DNA of 64,000 nucleotides, from positions 806,001 to 870,000 of the forward strand of contig NZ_CP097800.1 in NCBI RefSeq assembly GCF_000612545.2, written 5' to 3'. The stretch is from Streptomyces sp. PCS3-D2 (lineage in GTDB: Bacteria > Actinomycetota > Actinomycetes > Streptomycetales > Streptomycetaceae). The notes below the pieces were generated by a model. The model was given only the letters and a program-made list of their open reading frames with translations, was not told where the DNA came from and did not search any database. Positions 10,846 to 62,828 of the stretch are shown in pieces; within the stretch, counting starts at the first letter, position 1, and each line of letters opens with the position of its first letter. The position numbers and the translations under genes are program-made.

Positions 10846-12159
10846 ATGCCCTTCGACCCACCCGTTCCCCCGCCCATGCCTGACACTCCCCCCTCGCCCG
10901 CGATCAGCGAGACGGAGGCGGAGCACCTGATCCACGGAATCTGCTTCAAGACCGGTCCCCCCCGCCTCATCGGCGCCGAACTCGAATGGCTGGTCCTGGA
11001 CGCCGAGCGGCCGGGACTGCGCGTGACACCCGAACGGCTCCGAGCGGCTCACGCCGCGGCCCGCGCACTGGCCCTGAACTCGCGGGTGACCGTCGAACCC
11101 GGCGGCCAGCTGGAGCTCAGCTCGGCCCCCGCCACCTCCCTCACCGGCTGCGTCGGCCTCCTCCAGGACGACCTCACCGCCGTCCGGGCCGCCCTGCGGG
11201 AGCAGGGGCTCGTCCTGCACGGCCTCGGTCGCGATCCCCGCCTCCCGTACCACCGGCTGCTGAACAGCCCGCGCTACGACGCGATGGAGGCCTACTTCGA
11301 CCGCACCGGCCCGGCCGGCCGCACCATGATGTGCGCCTCCGCCTCCGTGCAGGTCTGCGTGGACGCCGGCCACGAGGAGCCCGGCGTGCTCGGCCACGGC
11401 CGGCGCTGGCGCCTCGCCCACCTGCTGGGCGCGGTCCTGGTGGCAGCGTTCGCCAACTCCCCCGCGCACGAAGGCCCGTATGCCGGATGGCGCTGCTCCC
11501 GGCAGGGGATCTGGAACGACCTGGACAGCCGGCGCACGCTCGCCCCGCCGCTGGAGGCGGATCCACGGGACGGCTGGGTGCGCCAGGCACTGGACACCGA
11601 GGTGATGTGCGTACGGTCGCAGGAGGGCGAGGCGTGGGGCGTCCCGCGCGGGACGACCTTCCGCGACTGGCTGCGCGCGGGCGACGGGAACCAGGCCCTG
11701 CGGGCCCCCACCGCCGAGGATCTCGACTACCACCTCACCACGCTGTTCCCGCCCGTGCGACCGCGCGGTCACATGGAGTTGCGCATGATCGACGCACAGC
11801 CCGGCGACGACGGCTGGCTGGTACCGGTGGCCGTCGTACACGCGCTGTTCGACGACCCGGAGGCCGCCGAGACCGCCTACCGGGTGACCAAGGCACTGGC
11901 CGACTCCTACGGCTCGCAGCCCGCGCCCCGCAACCCGCTGTGGCGGTCCGCCGCCCGCAACGGCCTGGCCGATCCCGAGCTGCGGGCGGCCGCCAAGACC
12001 TGCTTCCGCGCGGCCGCGGAGGCACTGCCCCGGCTCGGCGCGACCACGCACGTCCGGGACGCCGTCGGCGCCTTCAACGAACGCTTCGTGCGGCGCGGCC
12101 GATGTCCGGGTGACGAACCGCCGCAGCTGCGGCCCGAAGGGAAGGAGGACCTGAGGTGA
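10846..12159 (+). CDS. egtA: glutamate-cysteine ligase of ergothioneine biosynthesis
   Basis: A 437-residue GCS2-family ATP-dependent ligase that makes gamma-glutamylcysteine, the sulfur donor used by EgtB. The conserved substrate stretch GAELEWLVLD near residue 45 and the later RPRGHMELRMIDAQPGDDG are typical of EgtA. Three starts are possible. The ATG at 10846 has AGAGGA 7 bases upstream and is chosen; GTG/ATG at 10807/10810 would add 12-13 residues and has GGAGG 11-14 bases upstream. It is first of four genes with 4-base or shorter overlaps, so egtABCD is one translationally coupled operon. Confidence 0.9.
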   Translation: MPFDPPVPPPMPDTPPSPAISETEAEHLIHGICFKTGPPRLIGAELEWLVLDAERPGLRVTPERLRAAHAAARALALNSRVTVEPGGQLELSSAPATSLTGCVGLLQDDLTAVRAALREQGLVLHGLGRDPRLPYHRLLNSPRYDAMEAYFDRTGPAGRTMMCASASVQVCVDAGHEEPGVLGHGRRWRLAHLLGAVLVAAFANSPAHEGPYAGWRCSRQGIWNDLDSRRTLAPPLEADPRDGWVRQALDTEVMCVRSQEGEAWGVPRGTTFRDWLRAGDGNQALRAPTAEDLDYHLTTLFPPVRPRGHMELRMIDAQPGDDGWLVPVAVVHALFDDPEAAETAYRVTKALADSYGSQPAPRNPLWRSAARNGLADPELRAAAKTCFRAAAEALPRLGATTHVRDAVGAFNERFVRRGRCPGDEPPQLRPEGKEDLR

Positions 12160-58680: not shown

Positions 58681-58700
58681 AATTGCAGAAGTTTGCAATT
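58681..58700. promoter_or_regulatory. ArsR-type operator, AATTGCA-N6-TGCAATT
   Basis: A perfect 7-bp inverted repeat with a 6-base centre in an AT-rich patch, 92 bases before the first ArsR gene. The same TTGCA-N6-TGCAA core recurs at 62378-62395 before the second ArsR gene. Its spacing fits a winged-helix dimer of the ArsR/SmtB family. Confidence 0.7.
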
Positions 58701-58792
58701 TCATAGATGCTGTGACGACTGTGCCCTCCGGGAGACCCGGGCACAGCGCCAGGCGTTCGCCCCTCCCGGGGTCGTGAGAAGGGTGCGAGACC

Positions 58793-59134
58793 GTGCCGGT
58801 TCCGCTGTACCAGGCCAAGGCCGAATTCTTCAGGATGCTCGGGCACCCGGTGCGGATAAGGATCCTGGAGCTGCTGCAGGCAGGTCCGATGCCGGTACGG
58901 GACCTGCTGGCCGCGATCGAGGTCGAGCCGTCCGCCCTGTCGCAGCAGCTCGCGGTCCTGCGCCGGTCCGGGATCGTCACCTCGACGCGCAACGGCGCGA
59001 CGGTCGTCTACGAGCTGGCGGGCGGGGACGTCGCGCAGCTGATGCTGGCGGCACGGCGGATCCTGACCGAGGTCCTGACCGGGCAGAGCGAACTGCTGGA
59101 GGAACTGCGTGAGTCCGGGGTCGCGGCCCCGTGA
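58793..59134 (+). CDS. ArsR family regulator, first copy, cysteine-free
   Basis: A 113-residue winged-helix regulator. YQAKAEFFRMLGHPVRIRILELL opens the fold, and VEPSALSQQLAVLRRSGIV is the recognition helix. The protein contains no cysteine, so it lacks the ELCVCDL metal site of ArsR proper and cannot be a disulfide sensor; the signal is unknown. GTG at 58793 has GAAGGG upstream. Its stop overlaps the SulP start in GTGA, so it heads a five-gene operon. It is closely similar to the second ArsR at 62454, especially in the recognition helix. Confidence 0.9.
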   Translation: MPVPLYQAKAEFFRMLGHPVRIRILELLQAGPMPVRDLLAAIEVEPSALSQQLAVLRRSGIVTSTRNGATVVYELAGGDVAQLMLAARRILTEVLTGQSELLEELRESGVAAP

Positions 59135-60861
59135 CCGCGCGTTCCTTCCTGACGTCCGCAGTCGGGCGGATCCGCTCGGTGCTGCCGGTCCGGGCGGACT
59201 TCGCGGCGATGGCCCGCAGTCCCCGCCAGGACCTCCTGGCCGGGCTGACCGTGGCGATCGTGGCCCTCCCCCTCGCACTCGGGTTCGGGGTCTCCTCCGG
59301 GCTGGGCGCGGAGGCGGGGCTGGCCACCGCCGTGGTCGCGGGCGCGCTCGCCGCTCTGCTGGGCGGGTCGAACCTCCAGGTGTCCGGCCCGACCGGTGCG
59401 ATGACCGTGGTTCTGGTGCCGATCGTCGCCCGGTACGGGCCCGCCGGTGTGCTGACCGTCGGCCTGATGGCCGGCGTGCTCCTGATCGGGCTCGCCCTGC
59501 TGCGGGCCGGGCGGTACATGCGGTACGTACCCGCACCGGTGGTGGAGGGGTTCACCCTCGGGATCGCCTGCGTGATCGGCCTGCAGCAGATACCCCACGC
59601 GCTCGGCGTCGACAAGCCCGAGGGTGAAAAGGTCGTGCTCGTGGCGGTACGGGCGTTCGCGGACTGGGTGGCCTCCCCGAACTGGACCGCGATCAGCCTC
59701 TCGGCCGGGGTCGCGGCCGCGATGCTGGCGGGCGCCCGGTGGAAGCCTGCGATCCCGTTCTCGATCCTCGCGGTGATCGCAGCCACCGTGATCACACAGG
59801 TCTTCCACCGTGACGCGGCGGCCCCCATCGGGGACCTGCCCTCCGGCCTGCCCACCCCCTCCCTCGCCTTCCTCGACGCCTCTGCCTTCGGCTCGCTGCT
59901 CGCCCCGGCGGTCGCCGTCGCAGCACTCGCCGCGCTGGAGTCCCTGCTGTCTGCCACCGTCGCGGACGGGATGACGGTGGGGCAGCAGCACGACCCGGAC
60001 AAGGAACTCTTCGGACAGGGCATCGCCAACCTGGCCGCCCCGCTGTTCGGCGGTGTTCCCGCGACCGCGGCCATCGCGCGCACGGCTGTCAACGTCCGCG
60101 CCGGCGCTTCTTCCCGCCTCGCCGCACTCACCCATGCCGCCGTACTCGCCGTGATCGTGTTCGCCGCGGCGCCCCTCGTCGCGAAGATCCCCCTGGCCGC
60201 ACTGGCCGGCGTGCTGCTGGCGACCGCGATCCGCATGGTGGAGGTCGGCTCCCTGCGGGCGATGGCGAAGGCCACCCGCTCCGACGCCGTCGTCCTCGTC
60301 CTCACCGCCGCAGCCACGCTGATCCTCGATCTCGTCTACGCGGTGATCATCGGTCTGGTCGTCGCCGGAGCCCTGGCCCTGAAGGCGGTGGGGGAGCAGG
60401 TCCGGTTGGAACAGGTCGACTTCCGCCCGGACCTGCCCGGCGAACACAGCGACGAGGAACACGCACTGCTGGCCGAGCACATCGTCGCCTACCGCATCGA
60501 CGGCCCCCTCTTCTTCGCCGGCGCCCACCGCTTCCTCCTCGAACTCTCCGAGGTCGCCGACGTGAAGGTGGTCATCCTGCGCATGTCGAGGGTGACCACT
60601 CTGGACGCCACCGGCGCACTCGTCCTGAAGGACGCGGTGCAGAAGCTGCACCGGCGCGGCATCACCGTCCTGACCTCCGGCATCCGGCCCGCCCAGCGCC
60701 GGGCCCTCGACGCCGTCGGCGCCCTGGACCTGCTGCGCCTGGAGGGTCGCGAGTACGCCACCACTCCCGAGGCGATCGCCGGCGCCCGCAAGCACCTGGA
60801 GCAGGCGGGCCTGCTTCCGCTCCACCACCGACCGCACCGTTTCCGGAAGGCCGCACGATGA
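59131..60861 (+). CDS. SulP family anion transporter with STAS domain
   Basis: A 576-residue SulP protein. About 12-14 hydrophobic segments span residues 30-425, with the signature region GLTVAIVALPLALGFGVSSGL and VSGPTGAMTVVLVPIVARYG that forms the anion site. A cytoplasmic STAS domain occupies about 440-560, with LRMSRVTTLDATGALVLKD; the Thr in LDATG aligns with the phosphorylated Ser of SpoIIAA-type proteins. Substrates of the family are sulfate, bicarbonate or dicarboxylates, and I cannot tell which. GTG overlaps the ArsR stop and the 3' end overlaps the next ATG. Confidence 0.92.
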   Translation: MTARSFLTSAVGRIRSVLPVRADFAAMARSPRQDLLAGLTVAIVALPLALGFGVSSGLGAEAGLATAVVAGALAALLGGSNLQVSGPTGAMTVVLVPIVARYGPAGVLTVGLMAGVLLIGLALLRAGRYMRYVPAPVVEGFTLGIACVIGLQQIPHALGVDKPEGEKVVLVAVRAFADWVASPNWTAISLSAGVAAAMLAGARWKPAIPFSILAVIAATVITQVFHRDAAAPIGDLPSGLPTPSLAFLDASAFGSLLAPAVAVAALAALESLLSATVADGMTVGQQHDPDKELFGQGIANLAAPLFGGVPATAAIARTAVNVRAGASSRLAALTHAAVLAVIVFAAAPLVAKIPLAALAGVLLATAIRMVEVGSLRAMAKATRSDAVVLVLTAAATLILDLVYAVIIGLVVAGALALKAVGEQVRLEQVDFRPDLPGEHSDEEHALLAEHIVAYRIDGPLFFAGAHRFLLELSEVADVKVVILRMSRVTTLDATGALVLKDAVQKLHRRGITVLTSGIRPAQRRALDAVGALDLLRLEGREYATTPEAIAGARKHLEQAGLLPLHHRPHRFRKAAR

Positions 60862-61280
60862 CCCTCCCCGCCGAACTGCGCATGATCGAGGTCTCCGGCA
60901 CCGAGGCCCTGTGGCTTCTCGAAGGATCCACCCAGGGCCGGCTCGTCTACGTGCAGCGGGATCTGGCCGTCGTCCGCCCCGCCGCACACGTGATGGAGTA
61001 CGGGCGCCTCGTCGTCCGCACCCCTGTGCAAGCCGCGGCCGTTCCCGGCCGGGCCCTGCTGACCTACCAGGTCGACGAGATCCGCACCGCGGCCGGCACC
61101 GGCTGGACGGTGACCGCGCACGGCCCCGCCGACGTCATCTCGGACCCGGACGAGGCCGCCCACTACCGGCGCACCCTGCCCGGCTGGACCCACGGCCCGC
61201 ACGACACCCTGCTGCGCCTGCACCCGCAGCAGATCTCCGGATTCCGCCTCGCCCGCACGGTCCCGGGGGCAGGCCGGTGA
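60858..61280 (+). CDS. FMN-binding split-barrel (PPOX-type) protein
   Basis: A 140-residue protein of the pyridoxamine 5'-phosphate oxidase-like fold. It has ALWLLEGSTQGRLVYVQRD-LAVVRPAAHVMEYGRLVVRT (two beta hairpins), LLTYQVDEIR and TGWTVTAHGPADVI. Relatives are flavin or F420 reductases or heme/biliverdin binders; the sequence does not decide which. Its ATG overlaps the SulP stop in ATGA and its own stop overlaps the kinase gene in GTGA, so it is firmly part of the transporter operon. Confidence 0.85.
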   Translation: MTLPAELRMIEVSGTEALWLLEGSTQGRLVYVQRDLAVVRPAAHVMEYGRLVVRTPVQAAAVPGRALLTYQVDEIRTAAGTGWTVTAHGPADVISDPDEAAHYRRTLPGWTHGPHDTLLRLHPQQISGFRLARTVPGAGR

Positions 61281-61702
61281 GCGTCCGAGCCGAGACGCTG
61301 CCCTACCGGCACGTACTGGTCGTACCGGCCATGGGCTCGGCGGTGCGCATCGCCCGCGAGACCACCGAACTCGTCCTCGTGGAATGCGGAGTGGGGCTCC
61401 GGCATCCGAGCGTGGGCCCGGCCCTGCTGATCCTGGCCGAGCTGGTCACCAACGCCGTCCGCCACGCCGCCGTGCTGTCCCCGACGGTCACGGTCACCTA
61501 CGCGCACGGCCCGGGGGCGTTCGCGTTCGCCGTCCACGACCGCCACCCCTACCAGCCGGCCCTGTTCGGGGCGCTCGCCACCGCCCCGGGCAGCGGCCTG
61601 GCCATGGTGGCCGAAATGACCATGGAGCTCGCCGGCACCGCCGTCGTCCAGCCCGACGCGGACGGACGCGGCAAGGCCATCCGGATCACCCTCCCCCTGT
61701 GA
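61277..61702 (+). CDS. RsbW-like HATPase (anti-sigma-factor-type serine kinase)
   Basis: A 141-residue stand-alone GHKL ATPase. The N-box is ALLILAELVTNAVRHAA, with Glu and Asn for Mg-ATP. The following box is AFAVHDRHPYQP, which replaces the usual DxGxG, and APGSGLAMVAEM is the second glycine box. Proteins of this type phosphorylate STAS-domain partners on Ser or Thr. Here two STAS partners are encoded alongside it: the SulP C-terminus and the next gene. GTG overlaps the upstream stop in GTGA. Confidence 0.88.
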   Translation: MSVRAETLPYRHVLVVPAMGSAVRIARETTELVLVECGVGLRHPSVGPALLILAELVTNAVRHAAVLSPTVTVTYAHGPGAFAFAVHDRHPYQPALFGALATAPGSGLAMVAEMTMELAGTAVVQPDADGRGKAIRITLPL

Positions 61703-61719
61703 AGCAAGAGGACATGACG

Positions 61720-62130
61720 ATGACGATCGAATGGCACTACACCACCCGCCAGGACCTGGGCGTGCTGTCCCTGACCGGGTACCTCGGCGCGGACGCCACC
61801 GACCGGTTCACCGGCGCCGTCGGCTGGGCGCTCGCCCGGGGCACCGGCCCGGTCATCCTCGACCTGACCGGGCTTCTGGGCTGGTCCGCCGGCGGGCAGA
61901 TCGCCGTCGCCCAGGCCGCCCGCCGGCTCGCCGAGAGCGGGCGCCCCCTGGAGCTCGCGGCCATCCCCGCGGACGGCTCCCTCGTCCCCGACGCCGCCTG
62001 CCCGCCCGTCCCCGTCCACTGCGACCTCGCCGCCGCCCTGGCCGCCCACGGGGCGCAGGAAACGGTCAAGCGGTGGAGCACCGATGGCTGGCACGCCCCG
62101 CCGTCCCCCGGGGAACCCTCCCTCGCATGA
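61720..62130 (+). CDS. STAS-domain protein (anti-sigma antagonist type)
   Basis: A 136-residue STAS protein. The core reads LGVLSLTGYLGADATDRFTGAV, GPVILDLTGLLGWSAGGQIAV and RPLELAAIPADG. At the conserved D-S-S-G phosphorylation loop the sequence is W-S-A-G: the Asp is replaced by Trp while the phosphorylatable first Ser is kept. A Pro-rich tail follows residue 110. The ATG at 61720 has AGAGGA 7 bases upstream; an ATG two codons earlier is too close to it. It lies 17 bases after the kinase gene, so they probably act together. Confidence 0.83.
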   Translation: MTIEWHYTTRQDLGVLSLTGYLGADATDRFTGAVGWALARGTGPVILDLTGLLGWSAGGQIAVAQAARRLAESGRPLELAAIPADGSLVPDAACPPVPVHCDLAAALAAHGAQETVKRWSTDGWHAPPSPGEPSLA

Positions 62131-62377
62131 GACCAGCCGTATCCCCCTCTCGCCAGGACTCACCAGGAGAGGACGGGGACACCGGAACCACGAGCGACGT
62201 CAGGCGCGGCATCCTGGCCGCCGGCAACCGCCTCGCCTCCGCCCTGAGGGGTACGTCGGACGGAGCCCGAAGGAAGTGGGGCCCGGTCCGCAGGACCGGG
62301 TTCCCCACCAGGCCCGACCGGCGGCGAGGTCCATGCCGGTGGACCGCACGTCACCAGGGGCACCCACCGGGACCCGA
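62131..62377. other. intergenic region before second ArsR gene
   Basis: Contains the operon terminator hairpin and no coding signature that I trust. Together with the operator and leader it makes a 323-base gap. Confidence 0.4.
62282..62300 (+). terminator. terminator of the SulP-STAS operon
   Basis: CCCGGTCC at 62282-62289 pairs with GGACCGGG at 62293-62300 around GCA. Confidence 0.6.
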
Positions 62378-62395
62378 CTTGCAGGGATCTGCAAT
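62378..62395. promoter_or_regulatory. ArsR-type operator, second copy (CTTGCA-N6-TGCAAT)
   Basis: Same core, arm length and 6-base centre as the operator at 58681-58700, 58 bases before the second ArsR start. One outer base differs. Confidence 0.68.
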
Positions 62396-62453
62396 CGTGG
62401 AGGTCACAGGTGTGAGGAGGGCGAACGGATGCCCCACGAAGGAGCGGTCCCGG

Positions 62454-62828
62454 GTGGATGAGATGGGTAGTCACGGCAAGGCCACGCAGGCGAGTACGCC
62501 GCTGTACCAGCTGAAGTCCGAGTTCTTCAAGACGCTCGGGCACCCGGTCCGCATCCGCGTGCTGGAGCTCCTGTCCGTACGTGAGCACGCGGTCGCGGAG
62601 ATGCTGCCGGAGGTCGGGGTGGAGGCCGCGAGCCTCTCGCAGCAGCTGGCCGTCCTGCGCAAGGCCAACCTGGTGGTCACCCGCCGGGAAGGGTCGAACG
62701 TCCACTACTCGCTCGCCGACTCCCGGATCGCCGAACTCCTGGGGGTCGCCCGCAGCATCCTCTCCGGCGTCCTGGAAGGCCAGGCCGAGCTCCTGGCGGA
62801 CCTGCGCGCCAGCCGGACCGGCCCGTAG
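62454..62828 (+). CDS. ArsR family regulator, second copy, cysteine-free
   Basis: A 124-residue paralogue of the regulator at 58793. YQLKSEFFKTLGHPVRIRVLELL and VEAASLSQQLAVLRKANLV are nearly the same as in the first copy, with the DNA-reading residues SLSQQLAVLR conserved, so both should bind the same operators. It also has no cysteine. GTG at 62454 has GGAG 9 bases upstream; an ATG at 62463 is the alternative. It has its own operator and probably its own promoter, separated from the upstream operon by a hairpin. Confidence 0.9.
   Translation: MDEMGSHGKATQASTPLYQLKSEFFKTLGHPVRIRVLELLSVREHAVAEMLPEVGVEAASLSQQLAVLRKANLVVTRREGSNVHYSLADSRIAELLGVARSILSGVLEGQAELLADLRASRTGP

What the first reader, a model, noticed from the sequence alone, without database searches (positions are those of the whole stretch)
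58681..62828. SulP transporter locus with its own RsbW-like kinase, STAS protein and two ArsR regulators
Seen: ArsR-SulP-FMN barrel-HATPase are joined by 4-base overlaps, a free STAS protein follows 17 bases later, and a second ArsR sits downstream behind an identical operator. Known: RsbW-type kinases phosphorylate STAS proteins, and SulP transporters end in a STAS domain homologous to those targets. Inference: the kinase acts on the transporter STAS, with the free STAS as competitor or antagonist, so anion uptake is under partner-switching control and the locus represses itself through ArsR. I know of no described system of this composition.
Basis: partly seen in the sequence, partly recalled or inferred. 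Interest (0 to 1): 0.74.

Follow-up and report, generated by a model that had tools for sequence, protein, structure and literature searches.

The report
ArsR-controlled anion transporter operon
An operon for an anion transporter in what is by all signs a Streptomyces, controlled by relatives of the tuberculosis hypoxia regulator Rv0081, also carries a kinase-like protein and a STAS protein; these two look like separate members of the same control circuit rather than a switch built onto the transporter.

Summary
In detail: ArsR1-SulP-FMN barrel-HATPase overlap by 4 bases, a STAS-fold protein follows, and ArsR2 lies beyond a matching palindrome. The operator is real: 73 sites in relatives' loci against 0 reversed; 61 of 62 ArsR1 upstream regions within 2 mismatches. 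The neighbourhood is conserved but modular: of 78 SulP loci, 24 have HATPase and STAS, 19 HATPase only, 6 STAS only, 29 neither.

The proposed kinase-on-transporter switch is not supported. The phosphoserine position is Ala in 85 of 87 SulP STAS domains; in the free STAS it is Ala, Val, Ile or Pro in 34 of 36 in the best register, though the residue before is always Ser/Thr. HATPase or STAS persists behind an ArsR gene or operator-like site in genomes with no hit to this SulP.

This is an Rv0081-type ArsR regulon with exchangeable accessory genes; signal and anion remain unknown.

The parts
58683..58698 (.). ArsR operator (palindrome TTGCA-N6-TGCAA), 94 bases before ArsR1
   Evidence: similar spacing (80-110 bases) in 38 of 61 relatives with a site.
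58793..59134 (+). ArsR1, ArsR/SmtB repressor related to M. tuberculosis Rv0081; no cysteine
   Evidence: best solved relative 6jmi (Rv0081), 95.5 bits; 53 of 108 identical.
59131..60861 (+). SulP anion transporter with C-terminal STAS domain (D-A-T-G at residues 492-495)
   Evidence: best solved relatives 6ki1 and 5da0; Ala493 in 85 of 87.
60858..61280 (+). Pyridox_ox_2 (FMN-barrel) protein
   Evidence: solved relatives 6eci and 3fkh.
61277..61702 (+). HATPase_c_2 protein of the SpoIIAB/RsbW fold
   Evidence: AlphaFold2 pLDDT 92.4, best fold matches SpoIIAB and RsbW; N-box Glu55/Asn59 and Asp88 in 47 of 47.
61720..62130 (+). Free STAS protein of the SpoIIAA fold
   Evidence: Ser/Thr56 in 36 of 36, residue 57 Ala/Val/Pro/Ile in 34 of 36.
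62379..62394 (.). Second operator, same half-sites, different core, 68 bases before the ArsR2 ATG used here
   Evidence: exact in 14 of 50 relatives, in 13 with 2 mismatches and mostly of the form TTGCTAAT-N-TTRGCAA.
62463..62828 (+). ArsR2, the closer relative of Rv0081; no cysteine
   Evidence: best solved relative 6jmi (Rv0081), 109.5 bits against 48.6 for the next; 59 of 104 identical; heads a formate-hydrogenlyase-like gene row in 6 of 80 relatives.

Best explanation
The locus is the SulP branch of an actinobacterial regulon run by Rv0081-type ArsR repressors. ArsR1 and ArsR2 dimers bind 16-base palindromes in front of their own genes and hold the operon off until an unknown signal, probably low oxygen or redox/respiratory stress, releases them. 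Expression then supplies an anion transporter (SulP), a flavin-barrel protein and, in some species, a HATPase and a STAS protein. The last two are regulon members in their own right: they may work with each other or with the cell's sigma/anti-sigma network, but do not phosphorylate the transporter at the canonical site. Shown here by computation: gene order, operator, kinship to Rv0081, modularity, missing phosphoacceptor in SulP. Inferred: repression, signal, transport direction and substrate, and what the HATPase and STAS act on.
For: Operator: 73 sites against 0 reversed in 1.27 Mb of 88 loci, 46 of them within 350 bases of an ArsR gene start; 61 of 62 ArsR1 upstream regions within 2 of 10 mismatches, while 3 of 112 shuffled regions reached 2 and none fewer. 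Two of the three other sites in the own genome flank a YjdM gene with a gene that looks like DUF6126 beside it (YjdM by Pfam); clusters of YjdM and DUF6126 proteins occur near the locus in 43 and 17 of 88 loci. Kinship: Rv0081 is the top solved relative of ArsR1 (95.5 against 52.5 bits) and ArsR2 (109.5 against 48.6). Synteny: in L042, L048, L054, L059, L061 and L073 (6 of 80) ArsR2 precedes Oxidored_q6, Proton_antipo_M and NADHdh genes (Pfam run on L048 and, for a later 30/49-kDa gene, L042), like the series regulator, two oxidoreductases, HycD of rv0081-rv0084 in Table 1 of PMC6901956; in a second family L137 (G050) has relatives of two of these genes (67% and 33%) upstream of ArsR-SulP. Modularity: at least 18-19 changes of presence for each accessory gene on the SulP tree of 85 rows. 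Independence from SulP: HATPase behind an ArsR gene or operator-like site in G031, G118, G139, G151, G171 and G142, STAS in G118, G004 and G015, genomes with no SulP hit at E 1e-150. No Cys in 58 of 60 ArsR1 and 50 of 50 ArsR2, so hardly a thiol sensor.
Against: HATPase and STAS do go together: among 52 SulP genomes 25 have both, 8 HATPase only, 3 STAS only, 16 neither (Fisher p 4e-5, kinship ignored), and most copies lie within 5 kb of SulP (32 of 41 and 28 of 36 by coordinates, plus G163, where one search shows SulP beside two HATPase copies and one STAS). That fits a SulP-linked pair better than free regulon members. 'No SulP' rests on the 9 best candidates per genome that one search scored (G004, G015 and G031 were also negative at 1e-100). 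In the window genome the formate-hydrogenlyase-like genes are absent (only a 29% match), and they lie beside ArsR2 in only 6 of 80 relatives. Gene-by-gene homology of those genes with Rv0082-Rv0084 was not tested. For 23 of 50 ArsR2 regions the best site has 3-5 mismatches, as in shuffled sequence. No expression, binding or oxygen data exist here. Rv0081's own repeat could not be compared (its paper is not held).
Confidence: 0.62

Rival explanations
1. One reading: the HATPase is an RsbW-type kinase that phosphorylates the SulP STAS domain, with the free STAS as competitor, so anion uptake is under partner-switching control.
For: Conserved adjacency in 24 of 78 loci and 25 of 58 SulP hits; HATPase keeps N-box Glu and Asn in 47 of 47; folds match SpoIIAB and SpoIIAA.
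Against: Phosphoserine position is Ala in 85 of 87 SulP domains; the same D-A-T-G is found in relatives without HATPase. HATPase without free STAS in 19 of 78 loci, STAS without HATPase in 6. HATPase and STAS occur in genomes with no hit to this SulP.
Confidence: 0.08
2. The HATPase and STAS are an ordinary anti-sigma / anti-anti-sigma pair (RsbW/RsbV-like) aimed at a sigma factor elsewhere, carried in this operon so that the stress signal also tunes transcription; the conserved Ser/Thr56 is the phosphoacceptor.
For: Best fold matches of both proteins are partners in one complex, SpoIIAB:SpoIIAA; Ser/Thr56 in 36 of 36; co-occurrence of the two genes, also in G118 without a SulP hit; a SpoIIE-type phosphatase follows SulP in L040 (Pfam) and a similar-looking one follows the HATPase in L038.
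Against: In ungapped alignments with SpoIIAA, RsfB and 4qtp (all weak) and with SulP STAS (hhalign probability only 1.8%) Ser56 falls on the residue before the phosphoserine, and residue 57 is not phosphorylatable in 34 of 36. No sigma gene seen among recurring neighbours. The pair is often split.
Confidence: 0.25
3. The genes are together only by chance or lateral accretion and have no common function.
For: Presence is very labile (18-19 changes each on the tree).
Against: Same order and strand, 4-base couplings in many species (ArsR1-SulP 38 of 64, SulP-FMN 27 of 36, FMN-HATPase 16 of 27 adjacent pairs by my gene calls), and the operator or an ArsR gene before many of the separated copies.
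Confidence: 0.05

Closest known systems
Rv0079-Rv0087 locus of Mycobacterium tuberculosis (Rv0081 ArsR regulator, Rv0080 flavin-barrel protein, Rv0082-Rv0087 formate-hydrogenlyase-like genes)
   Same: ArsR2 57% and ArsR1 49% identical to Rv0081 over the aligned parts; a PNPOx-type barrel gene in the locus; in 6 of 80 relatives the ArsR2-led row resembles rv0081-rv0084 as listed in PMC6901956; Rv0081 represses itself through an inverted repeat and lacks a defined metal site (passages of PMC6177252).
   Different: Has a second ArsR, a SulP transporter, HATPase and STAS; the window genome lacks the formate-hydrogenlyase-like genes; DosR control not tested; kinship of the barrel protein to Rv0080 not tested.
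RsbV/RsbW and SpoIIAA/SpoIIAB partner switches
   Same: Folds of both proteins; N-box Glu and Asn.
   Different: Canonical phosphoserine not conserved in the best register, no sigma factor among recurring neighbours, phosphatase directly downstream in 2 loci, the two genes often separated.
SulP/SLC26 transporters (6ki1, recalled as BicA; 5da0, recalled as SLC26Dg; DauA family model)
   Same: Transmembrane and STAS domains; Glu270 in 87 of 87 at the place where the alignments show Glu in 5da0 and Asp in 6ki1.
   Different: Below the NCBIfam cut-offs for DauA (349 of 614), SulP (290 of 380) and BicA (277 of 880), so substrate unassigned.

Membership tests
Rv0081-type ArsR regulators | Rv0081 is the closest solved relative, nearly full length | tested here: met
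   ArsR1, 95.5 bits, residues 4-111; ArsR2, 109.5 bits, residues 11-117; compared with solved structures only.
Rv0081-type ArsR regulators | Inverted repeat upstream of its own gene | tested here: met
   Identity with Rv0081's own repeat not testable (paper not held).
Rv0081-type ArsR regulators | Heads a formate-hydrogenlyase-like operon | tested here: inconclusive
   Met in 6 of 80 relatives; not in the window or its genome.
Rv0081-type ArsR regulators | Response to hypoxia | not testable with these tools
   Needs expression data.
RsbV/RsbW-type partner switch | HATPase of RsbW/SpoIIAB fold with N-box Glu and Asn | tested here: met
RsbV/RsbW-type partner switch | STAS partner with phosphorylatable Ser/Thr at the SpoIIAA Ser58 position | tested here: inconclusive
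   Residue 57 is Ser/Thr in 2 of 36 in the ungapped register; neighbouring residue 56 is Ser/Thr in 36 of 36; the register rests on weak alignments.
RsbV/RsbW-type partner switch | Cognate sigma factor or phosphatase gene in the locus | tested here: not met
   No sigma factor among the 11 neighbour clusters in 5 or more of 88 loci (by eye). Phosphatase-type gene on the same strand after SulP only in L040 and L038 within the stretch read; long HATPase-profile hits lie elsewhere in L010, L038, L057 and L072. None in the window stretch read.
RsbW substrate: SulP STAS | Ser/Thr at the canonical phosphoacceptor position | tested here: not met
   Ala in 85 of 87; Ser in L136 and L137, which lack the HATPase.
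SulP/SLC26 transporter | Sulfate_transp domain plus C-terminal STAS | tested here: met
   (247 and 57.7 bits).

The most novel reading that the evidence does not exclude
A phosphorylation-free partner switch: the HATPase, charged with ATP or ADP, chooses between the free STAS and the transporter's STAS, neither of which has the canonical phosphoserine, so that anion transport follows the cell's energy state inside a hypoxia-type ArsR regulon, with the transported anion (formate or bicarbonate would fit the formate-hydrogenlyase-like and carbonic anhydrase genes found beside some relatives) or a product of it relieving the ArsR repressors.
Probability: 0.07. Interest if true: 0.8.

Novelty: new variant of a known kind. 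Interest (0 to 1): 0.5.

Why it matters
What Rv0081, a hub of the mycobacterial hypoxia response, senses is not stated in the passages read. Harmless relatives of the window's genus carry close kin of it with a sharply defined operator, a small set of likely targets and a transporter as first target; repressors of this family often answer to a compound linked to their target (general knowledge), so this regulon offers a safe model in which to look for the signal. It also corrects an appealing but unsupported idea, that a kinase gene beside a STAS-bearing transporter means phospho-control of the transporter.

Tried and rejected
Rejected: (1) kinase on SulP, for the residue and gene-loss evidence above. 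(2) My own first reading that the conserved Ser of the free STAS is the canonical phosphosite: the profile alignments shift it by one residue. (3) My reading that STAS is tied to the FMN barrel more than to the HATPase (odds ratios 34 and 6): on independent pairs of the tree the two do not differ (STAS-FMN 4.5 same against 0.2 opposite, STAS-HATPase 5.3 against 0.4, of 11 pairs each, median p 0.06). (4) Thiol- or metal-sensing ArsR: no conserved Cys; the lack of a His/Asp site in the last helix was judged by eye. (5) Substrate from family models: no cut-off reached.

Led nowhere: translated wrong starts, replaced; the first gene caller was trained out of frame, corrected and rerun; the iterated HATPase profile picked up long phosphatase-type proteins, so later counts use tblastn with in-operon copies at 90 or more aligned residues; hhalign of free STAS against SulP STAS has low probability (1.8%); PMC2000904 and PMC9739823 (passages only) name an ArsR regulator SCO6808 whose relation to this one was not tested. 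Literature searches for the composition: (8 of 8 listed; 20 of 51; 4 of 4; 12 of 18; 2 of 2; 10 of 50): no listed title or start of abstract describes it; only open-licence papers are held.

Rows dropped: L062 and L078 of 80 (under 1500 bases after SulP); L017, L031 and L036 were kept although their contigs end 1.6-2.2 kb after SulP, so an absent STAS in L017 and L031 may be beyond the end. ArsR1 upstream counts use the 62 loci in which a called ArsR gene lies directly before SulP; gene starts are from my own caller.
Full report
Observation. All six genes, their strands, the three 4-base overlaps and the 17-base gap are as described. Pfam confirms five of the six; the free STAS is below cut-off, but its AlphaFold2 model finds SpoIIAA bound to SpoIIAB as best solved match, and the HATPase model (pLDDT 92.4) finds SpoIIAB and RsbW. 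The two operators share their outer half-sites but not their cores, so 'identical' is too strong.

Operator. The palindrome TTGCA-N6-TGCAA occurs 5 times in the 7.6-Mb genome against 1 for the reversed pattern. Two of the three remaining sites flank a YjdM gene, with a DUF6126-like gene beside it (YjdM by Pfam). In relatives these same families sit near the SulP locus: a YjdM cluster in 43 and a DUF6126 cluster in 17 of 88 loci (Pfam on one DUF6126 member). In 88 loci (1.27 Mb) the pattern occurs 73 times against 0 reversed; 46 of the sites lie within 350 bases of an ArsR gene start. Upstream of ArsR1, 61 of 62 relatives have a site within 2 mismatches of the ten fixed bases; of 112 shuffled regions 3 reached 2 and none fewer. 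38 of the 61 lie 80-110 bases before the called start, the rest from 8 to 207. Jiangella and Micromonospora loci have a TTGAAGA-type variant. Upstream of ArsR2, 14 of 50 are exact, 13 have 2 mismatches and mostly read TTGCTAAT-N-TTRGCAA, and the other 23 have 3 to 5, which shuffled sequence also gives, though some of them resemble that second form. The two repressors may thus have related but separate sites in much of the genus.

Which ArsR. The best solved relative of ArsR1 is Rv0081 of M. tuberculosis (95.5 bits, next 52.5), and so it is for ArsR2 (109.5, next 48.6). ArsR1 is identical in 53 of 108 and ArsR2 in 59 of 104 positions. Cysteine is absent from 58 of 60 ArsR1 and all 50 ArsR2 examined. 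In 6 of 80 relatives ArsR2 is followed on the same strand by a 20-kDa complex-I-like subunit, a proton-antiporter-type subunit and a NADH-dehydrogenase-1-type subunit; Pfam was run on L048 and, for the 30/49-kDa subunit further on, on L042. Table 1 of PMC6901956 (passages read) lists rv0081 (regulator), rv0082 and rv0083 (probable oxidoreductases) and rv0084 (hycD) in this order; the match is by order and kind of product, not by direct sequence comparison. Flanks were limited to 7 kb, so 6 is a lower bound. In another family of the order, L137 (G050) has relatives of the NADH-dehydrogenase-1-type (67%) and antiporter-type (33%) proteins upstream of ArsR-SulP-FMN barrel-STAS. PMC6177252 (passages) states that Rv0081 belongs to the DosR regulon, represses itself through an inverted repeat and lacks a defined metal site; PMC10509353 (passages) places it in a largely uncharacterised ArsR cluster. 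In M. tuberculosis Rv0080, a flavin-barrel protein, is in one operon with Rv0081 (PMC6901956, passages); its only characterised homologue, Fsq, sequesters flavin during hypoxia (PMC13284343, passages). The FMN-barrel protein of this operon belongs to a PNPOx-type family too, but kinship to Rv0080 was not tested. The window genome has no good match to the formate-hydrogenlyase-like subunit.

How fixed is the set. A scan with SulP gave 80 named loci, mostly Streptomyces, with Jiangella, Micromonospora, Demequina, Phytoactinopolyspora, Umezawaea and others. ArsR-SulP is the core (a called ArsR directly before SulP in 62 of 80). The Jiangella, Micromonospora, Demequina and Phytoactinopolyspora loci have none of FMN barrel, HATPase and STAS; L136 and L137, of another family, have FMN barrel and STAS without HATPase. 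Of 78 loci with enough sequence: FMN+HATPase+STAS 23, HATPase+STAS 1, FMN+HATPase without an intact STAS 6, HATPase with no intact FMN or STAS 13, FMN+STAS 4, STAS alone 2, FMN alone 4, no intact accessory gene 25 (fragments counted as absent). Each accessory gene needs at least 18-19 changes on the SulP tree of 85 rows. Remnants of the HATPase lie between FMN and STAS in L010 and L024; none was found in L034, L037 and (beyond a chance-level piece) L137. So at least in two loci it was lost while the STAS stayed.

Genus sample. In 150 genomes of the window's genus HATPase, STAS and SulP occur in 39, 33 and 52 (cut-offs 1e-25, 1e-20, 1e-150; up to 27, 27 and 9 candidates scored per genome). Among the 52 SulP genomes HATPase and STAS are associated (25 both, 8, 3, 16 neither; p 4e-5), which favours a joint role for these two; the test ignores kinship, and the tree-based test is short of significance (median p 0.06). 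Of 41 HATPase hits 32, and of 36 STAS hits 28, lie within 5 kb of a listed SulP; in G163, whose contigs are short, one search shows SulP beside two HATPase copies and one STAS besides. In the six genomes with HATPase but no SulP hit (G031, G118, G139, G151, G171, G142) it lies behind an ArsR gene or an operator-like site. Of the five with STAS but no SulP hit, this holds for G118, G004 and G015; the two copies in G122 and the one in G100 have no operator match in the fetched stretch, though one G122 copy has an ArsR1-like gene nearby on the other strand and the G100 contig begins 322 bases before the gene (the operator scan used a looser pattern without a control). G118 holds both genes at two separate ArsR loci. 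G160 and G167 have SulP elsewhere besides a separate copy of HATPase or STAS.

Phosphorylation. The phosphorylated serine of SpoIIAA-type proteins lies in a conserved loop (PMC8256260, passages). In the SulP domain that loop reads D-A-T-G: Ala in 85 of 87. For the free STAS the ungapped alignments and one search place Ser56 on the residue before the phosphoserine and residue 57 (Ala 23, Val 8, Pro 2, Ile 1, Thr 1, Ser 1 of 36) on the phosphoserine. These alignments are weak; a one-residue shift cannot be excluded, and Ser/Thr56 is present in 36 of 36, so phosphorylation of the free STAS remains open. The transporter domain is a poor substrate at the canonical site, though Thr or Ser follows the Ala (or, in two, Ser) in all 87. 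The HATPase keeps Glu55, Asn59 and Asp88 in 47 of 47, so nucleotide binding is likely; kinase activity is unproven.

Judgement. This is best read as an Rv0081-type ArsR regulon in which SulP is the most widely kept target and FMN barrel, HATPase, STAS and YjdM are exchangeable members.

Noticed in passing
L040:4236-6401 and L038:9189-11288: A GAF/PAS-SpoIIE-type phosphatase gene directly follows SulP (L040; Pfam), and a similar-looking one follows the HATPase (L038; by eye and profile hit).
   Followed up: partly
L008:12184-12672, L006, L139, L198:7310-7933, L199:1347-1970: Beta-carbonic-anhydrase genes recur near the locus (6 of 88 loci; Pfam on L008); in L198 and L199 a similar-looking gene directly follows ArsR2 on the same strand (by eye).
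   Followed up: partly
L012:12276-15621 and L139:9350-11000: Genes that look by eye like persulfide dioxygenase, rhodanese, sulfite exporter and a CsoR-like regulator (not all in both) lie near the SulP operon.
   Followed up: no
L007:11089-11538 with operator at 11787, similar in L008, L015, L016, L079: A second HATPase paralogue (34-43% identical to the first) lies downstream on the other strand behind its own copy of the operator, in some loci with a 58-residue protein of no Pfam family.
   Followed up: partly
L138, region after SulP (G025): Only short pieces of FMN barrel and HATPase remain, close together, before an intact STAS and a YjdM gene.
   Followed up: no
L136 and L137 (G049, G050): In a related family the locus is SulP-FMN barrel-STAS with no HATPase, and exactly here the SulP STAS has Ser at the phosphoacceptor position; L137 also has formate-hydrogenlyase-like genes upstream.
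   Followed up: partly
G000:C1:7169487-7169810 (L132): A third ArsR, 78% identical to ArsR1, in the own genome, beside a roadblock-like protein and another STAS protein (by eye).
   Followed up: no
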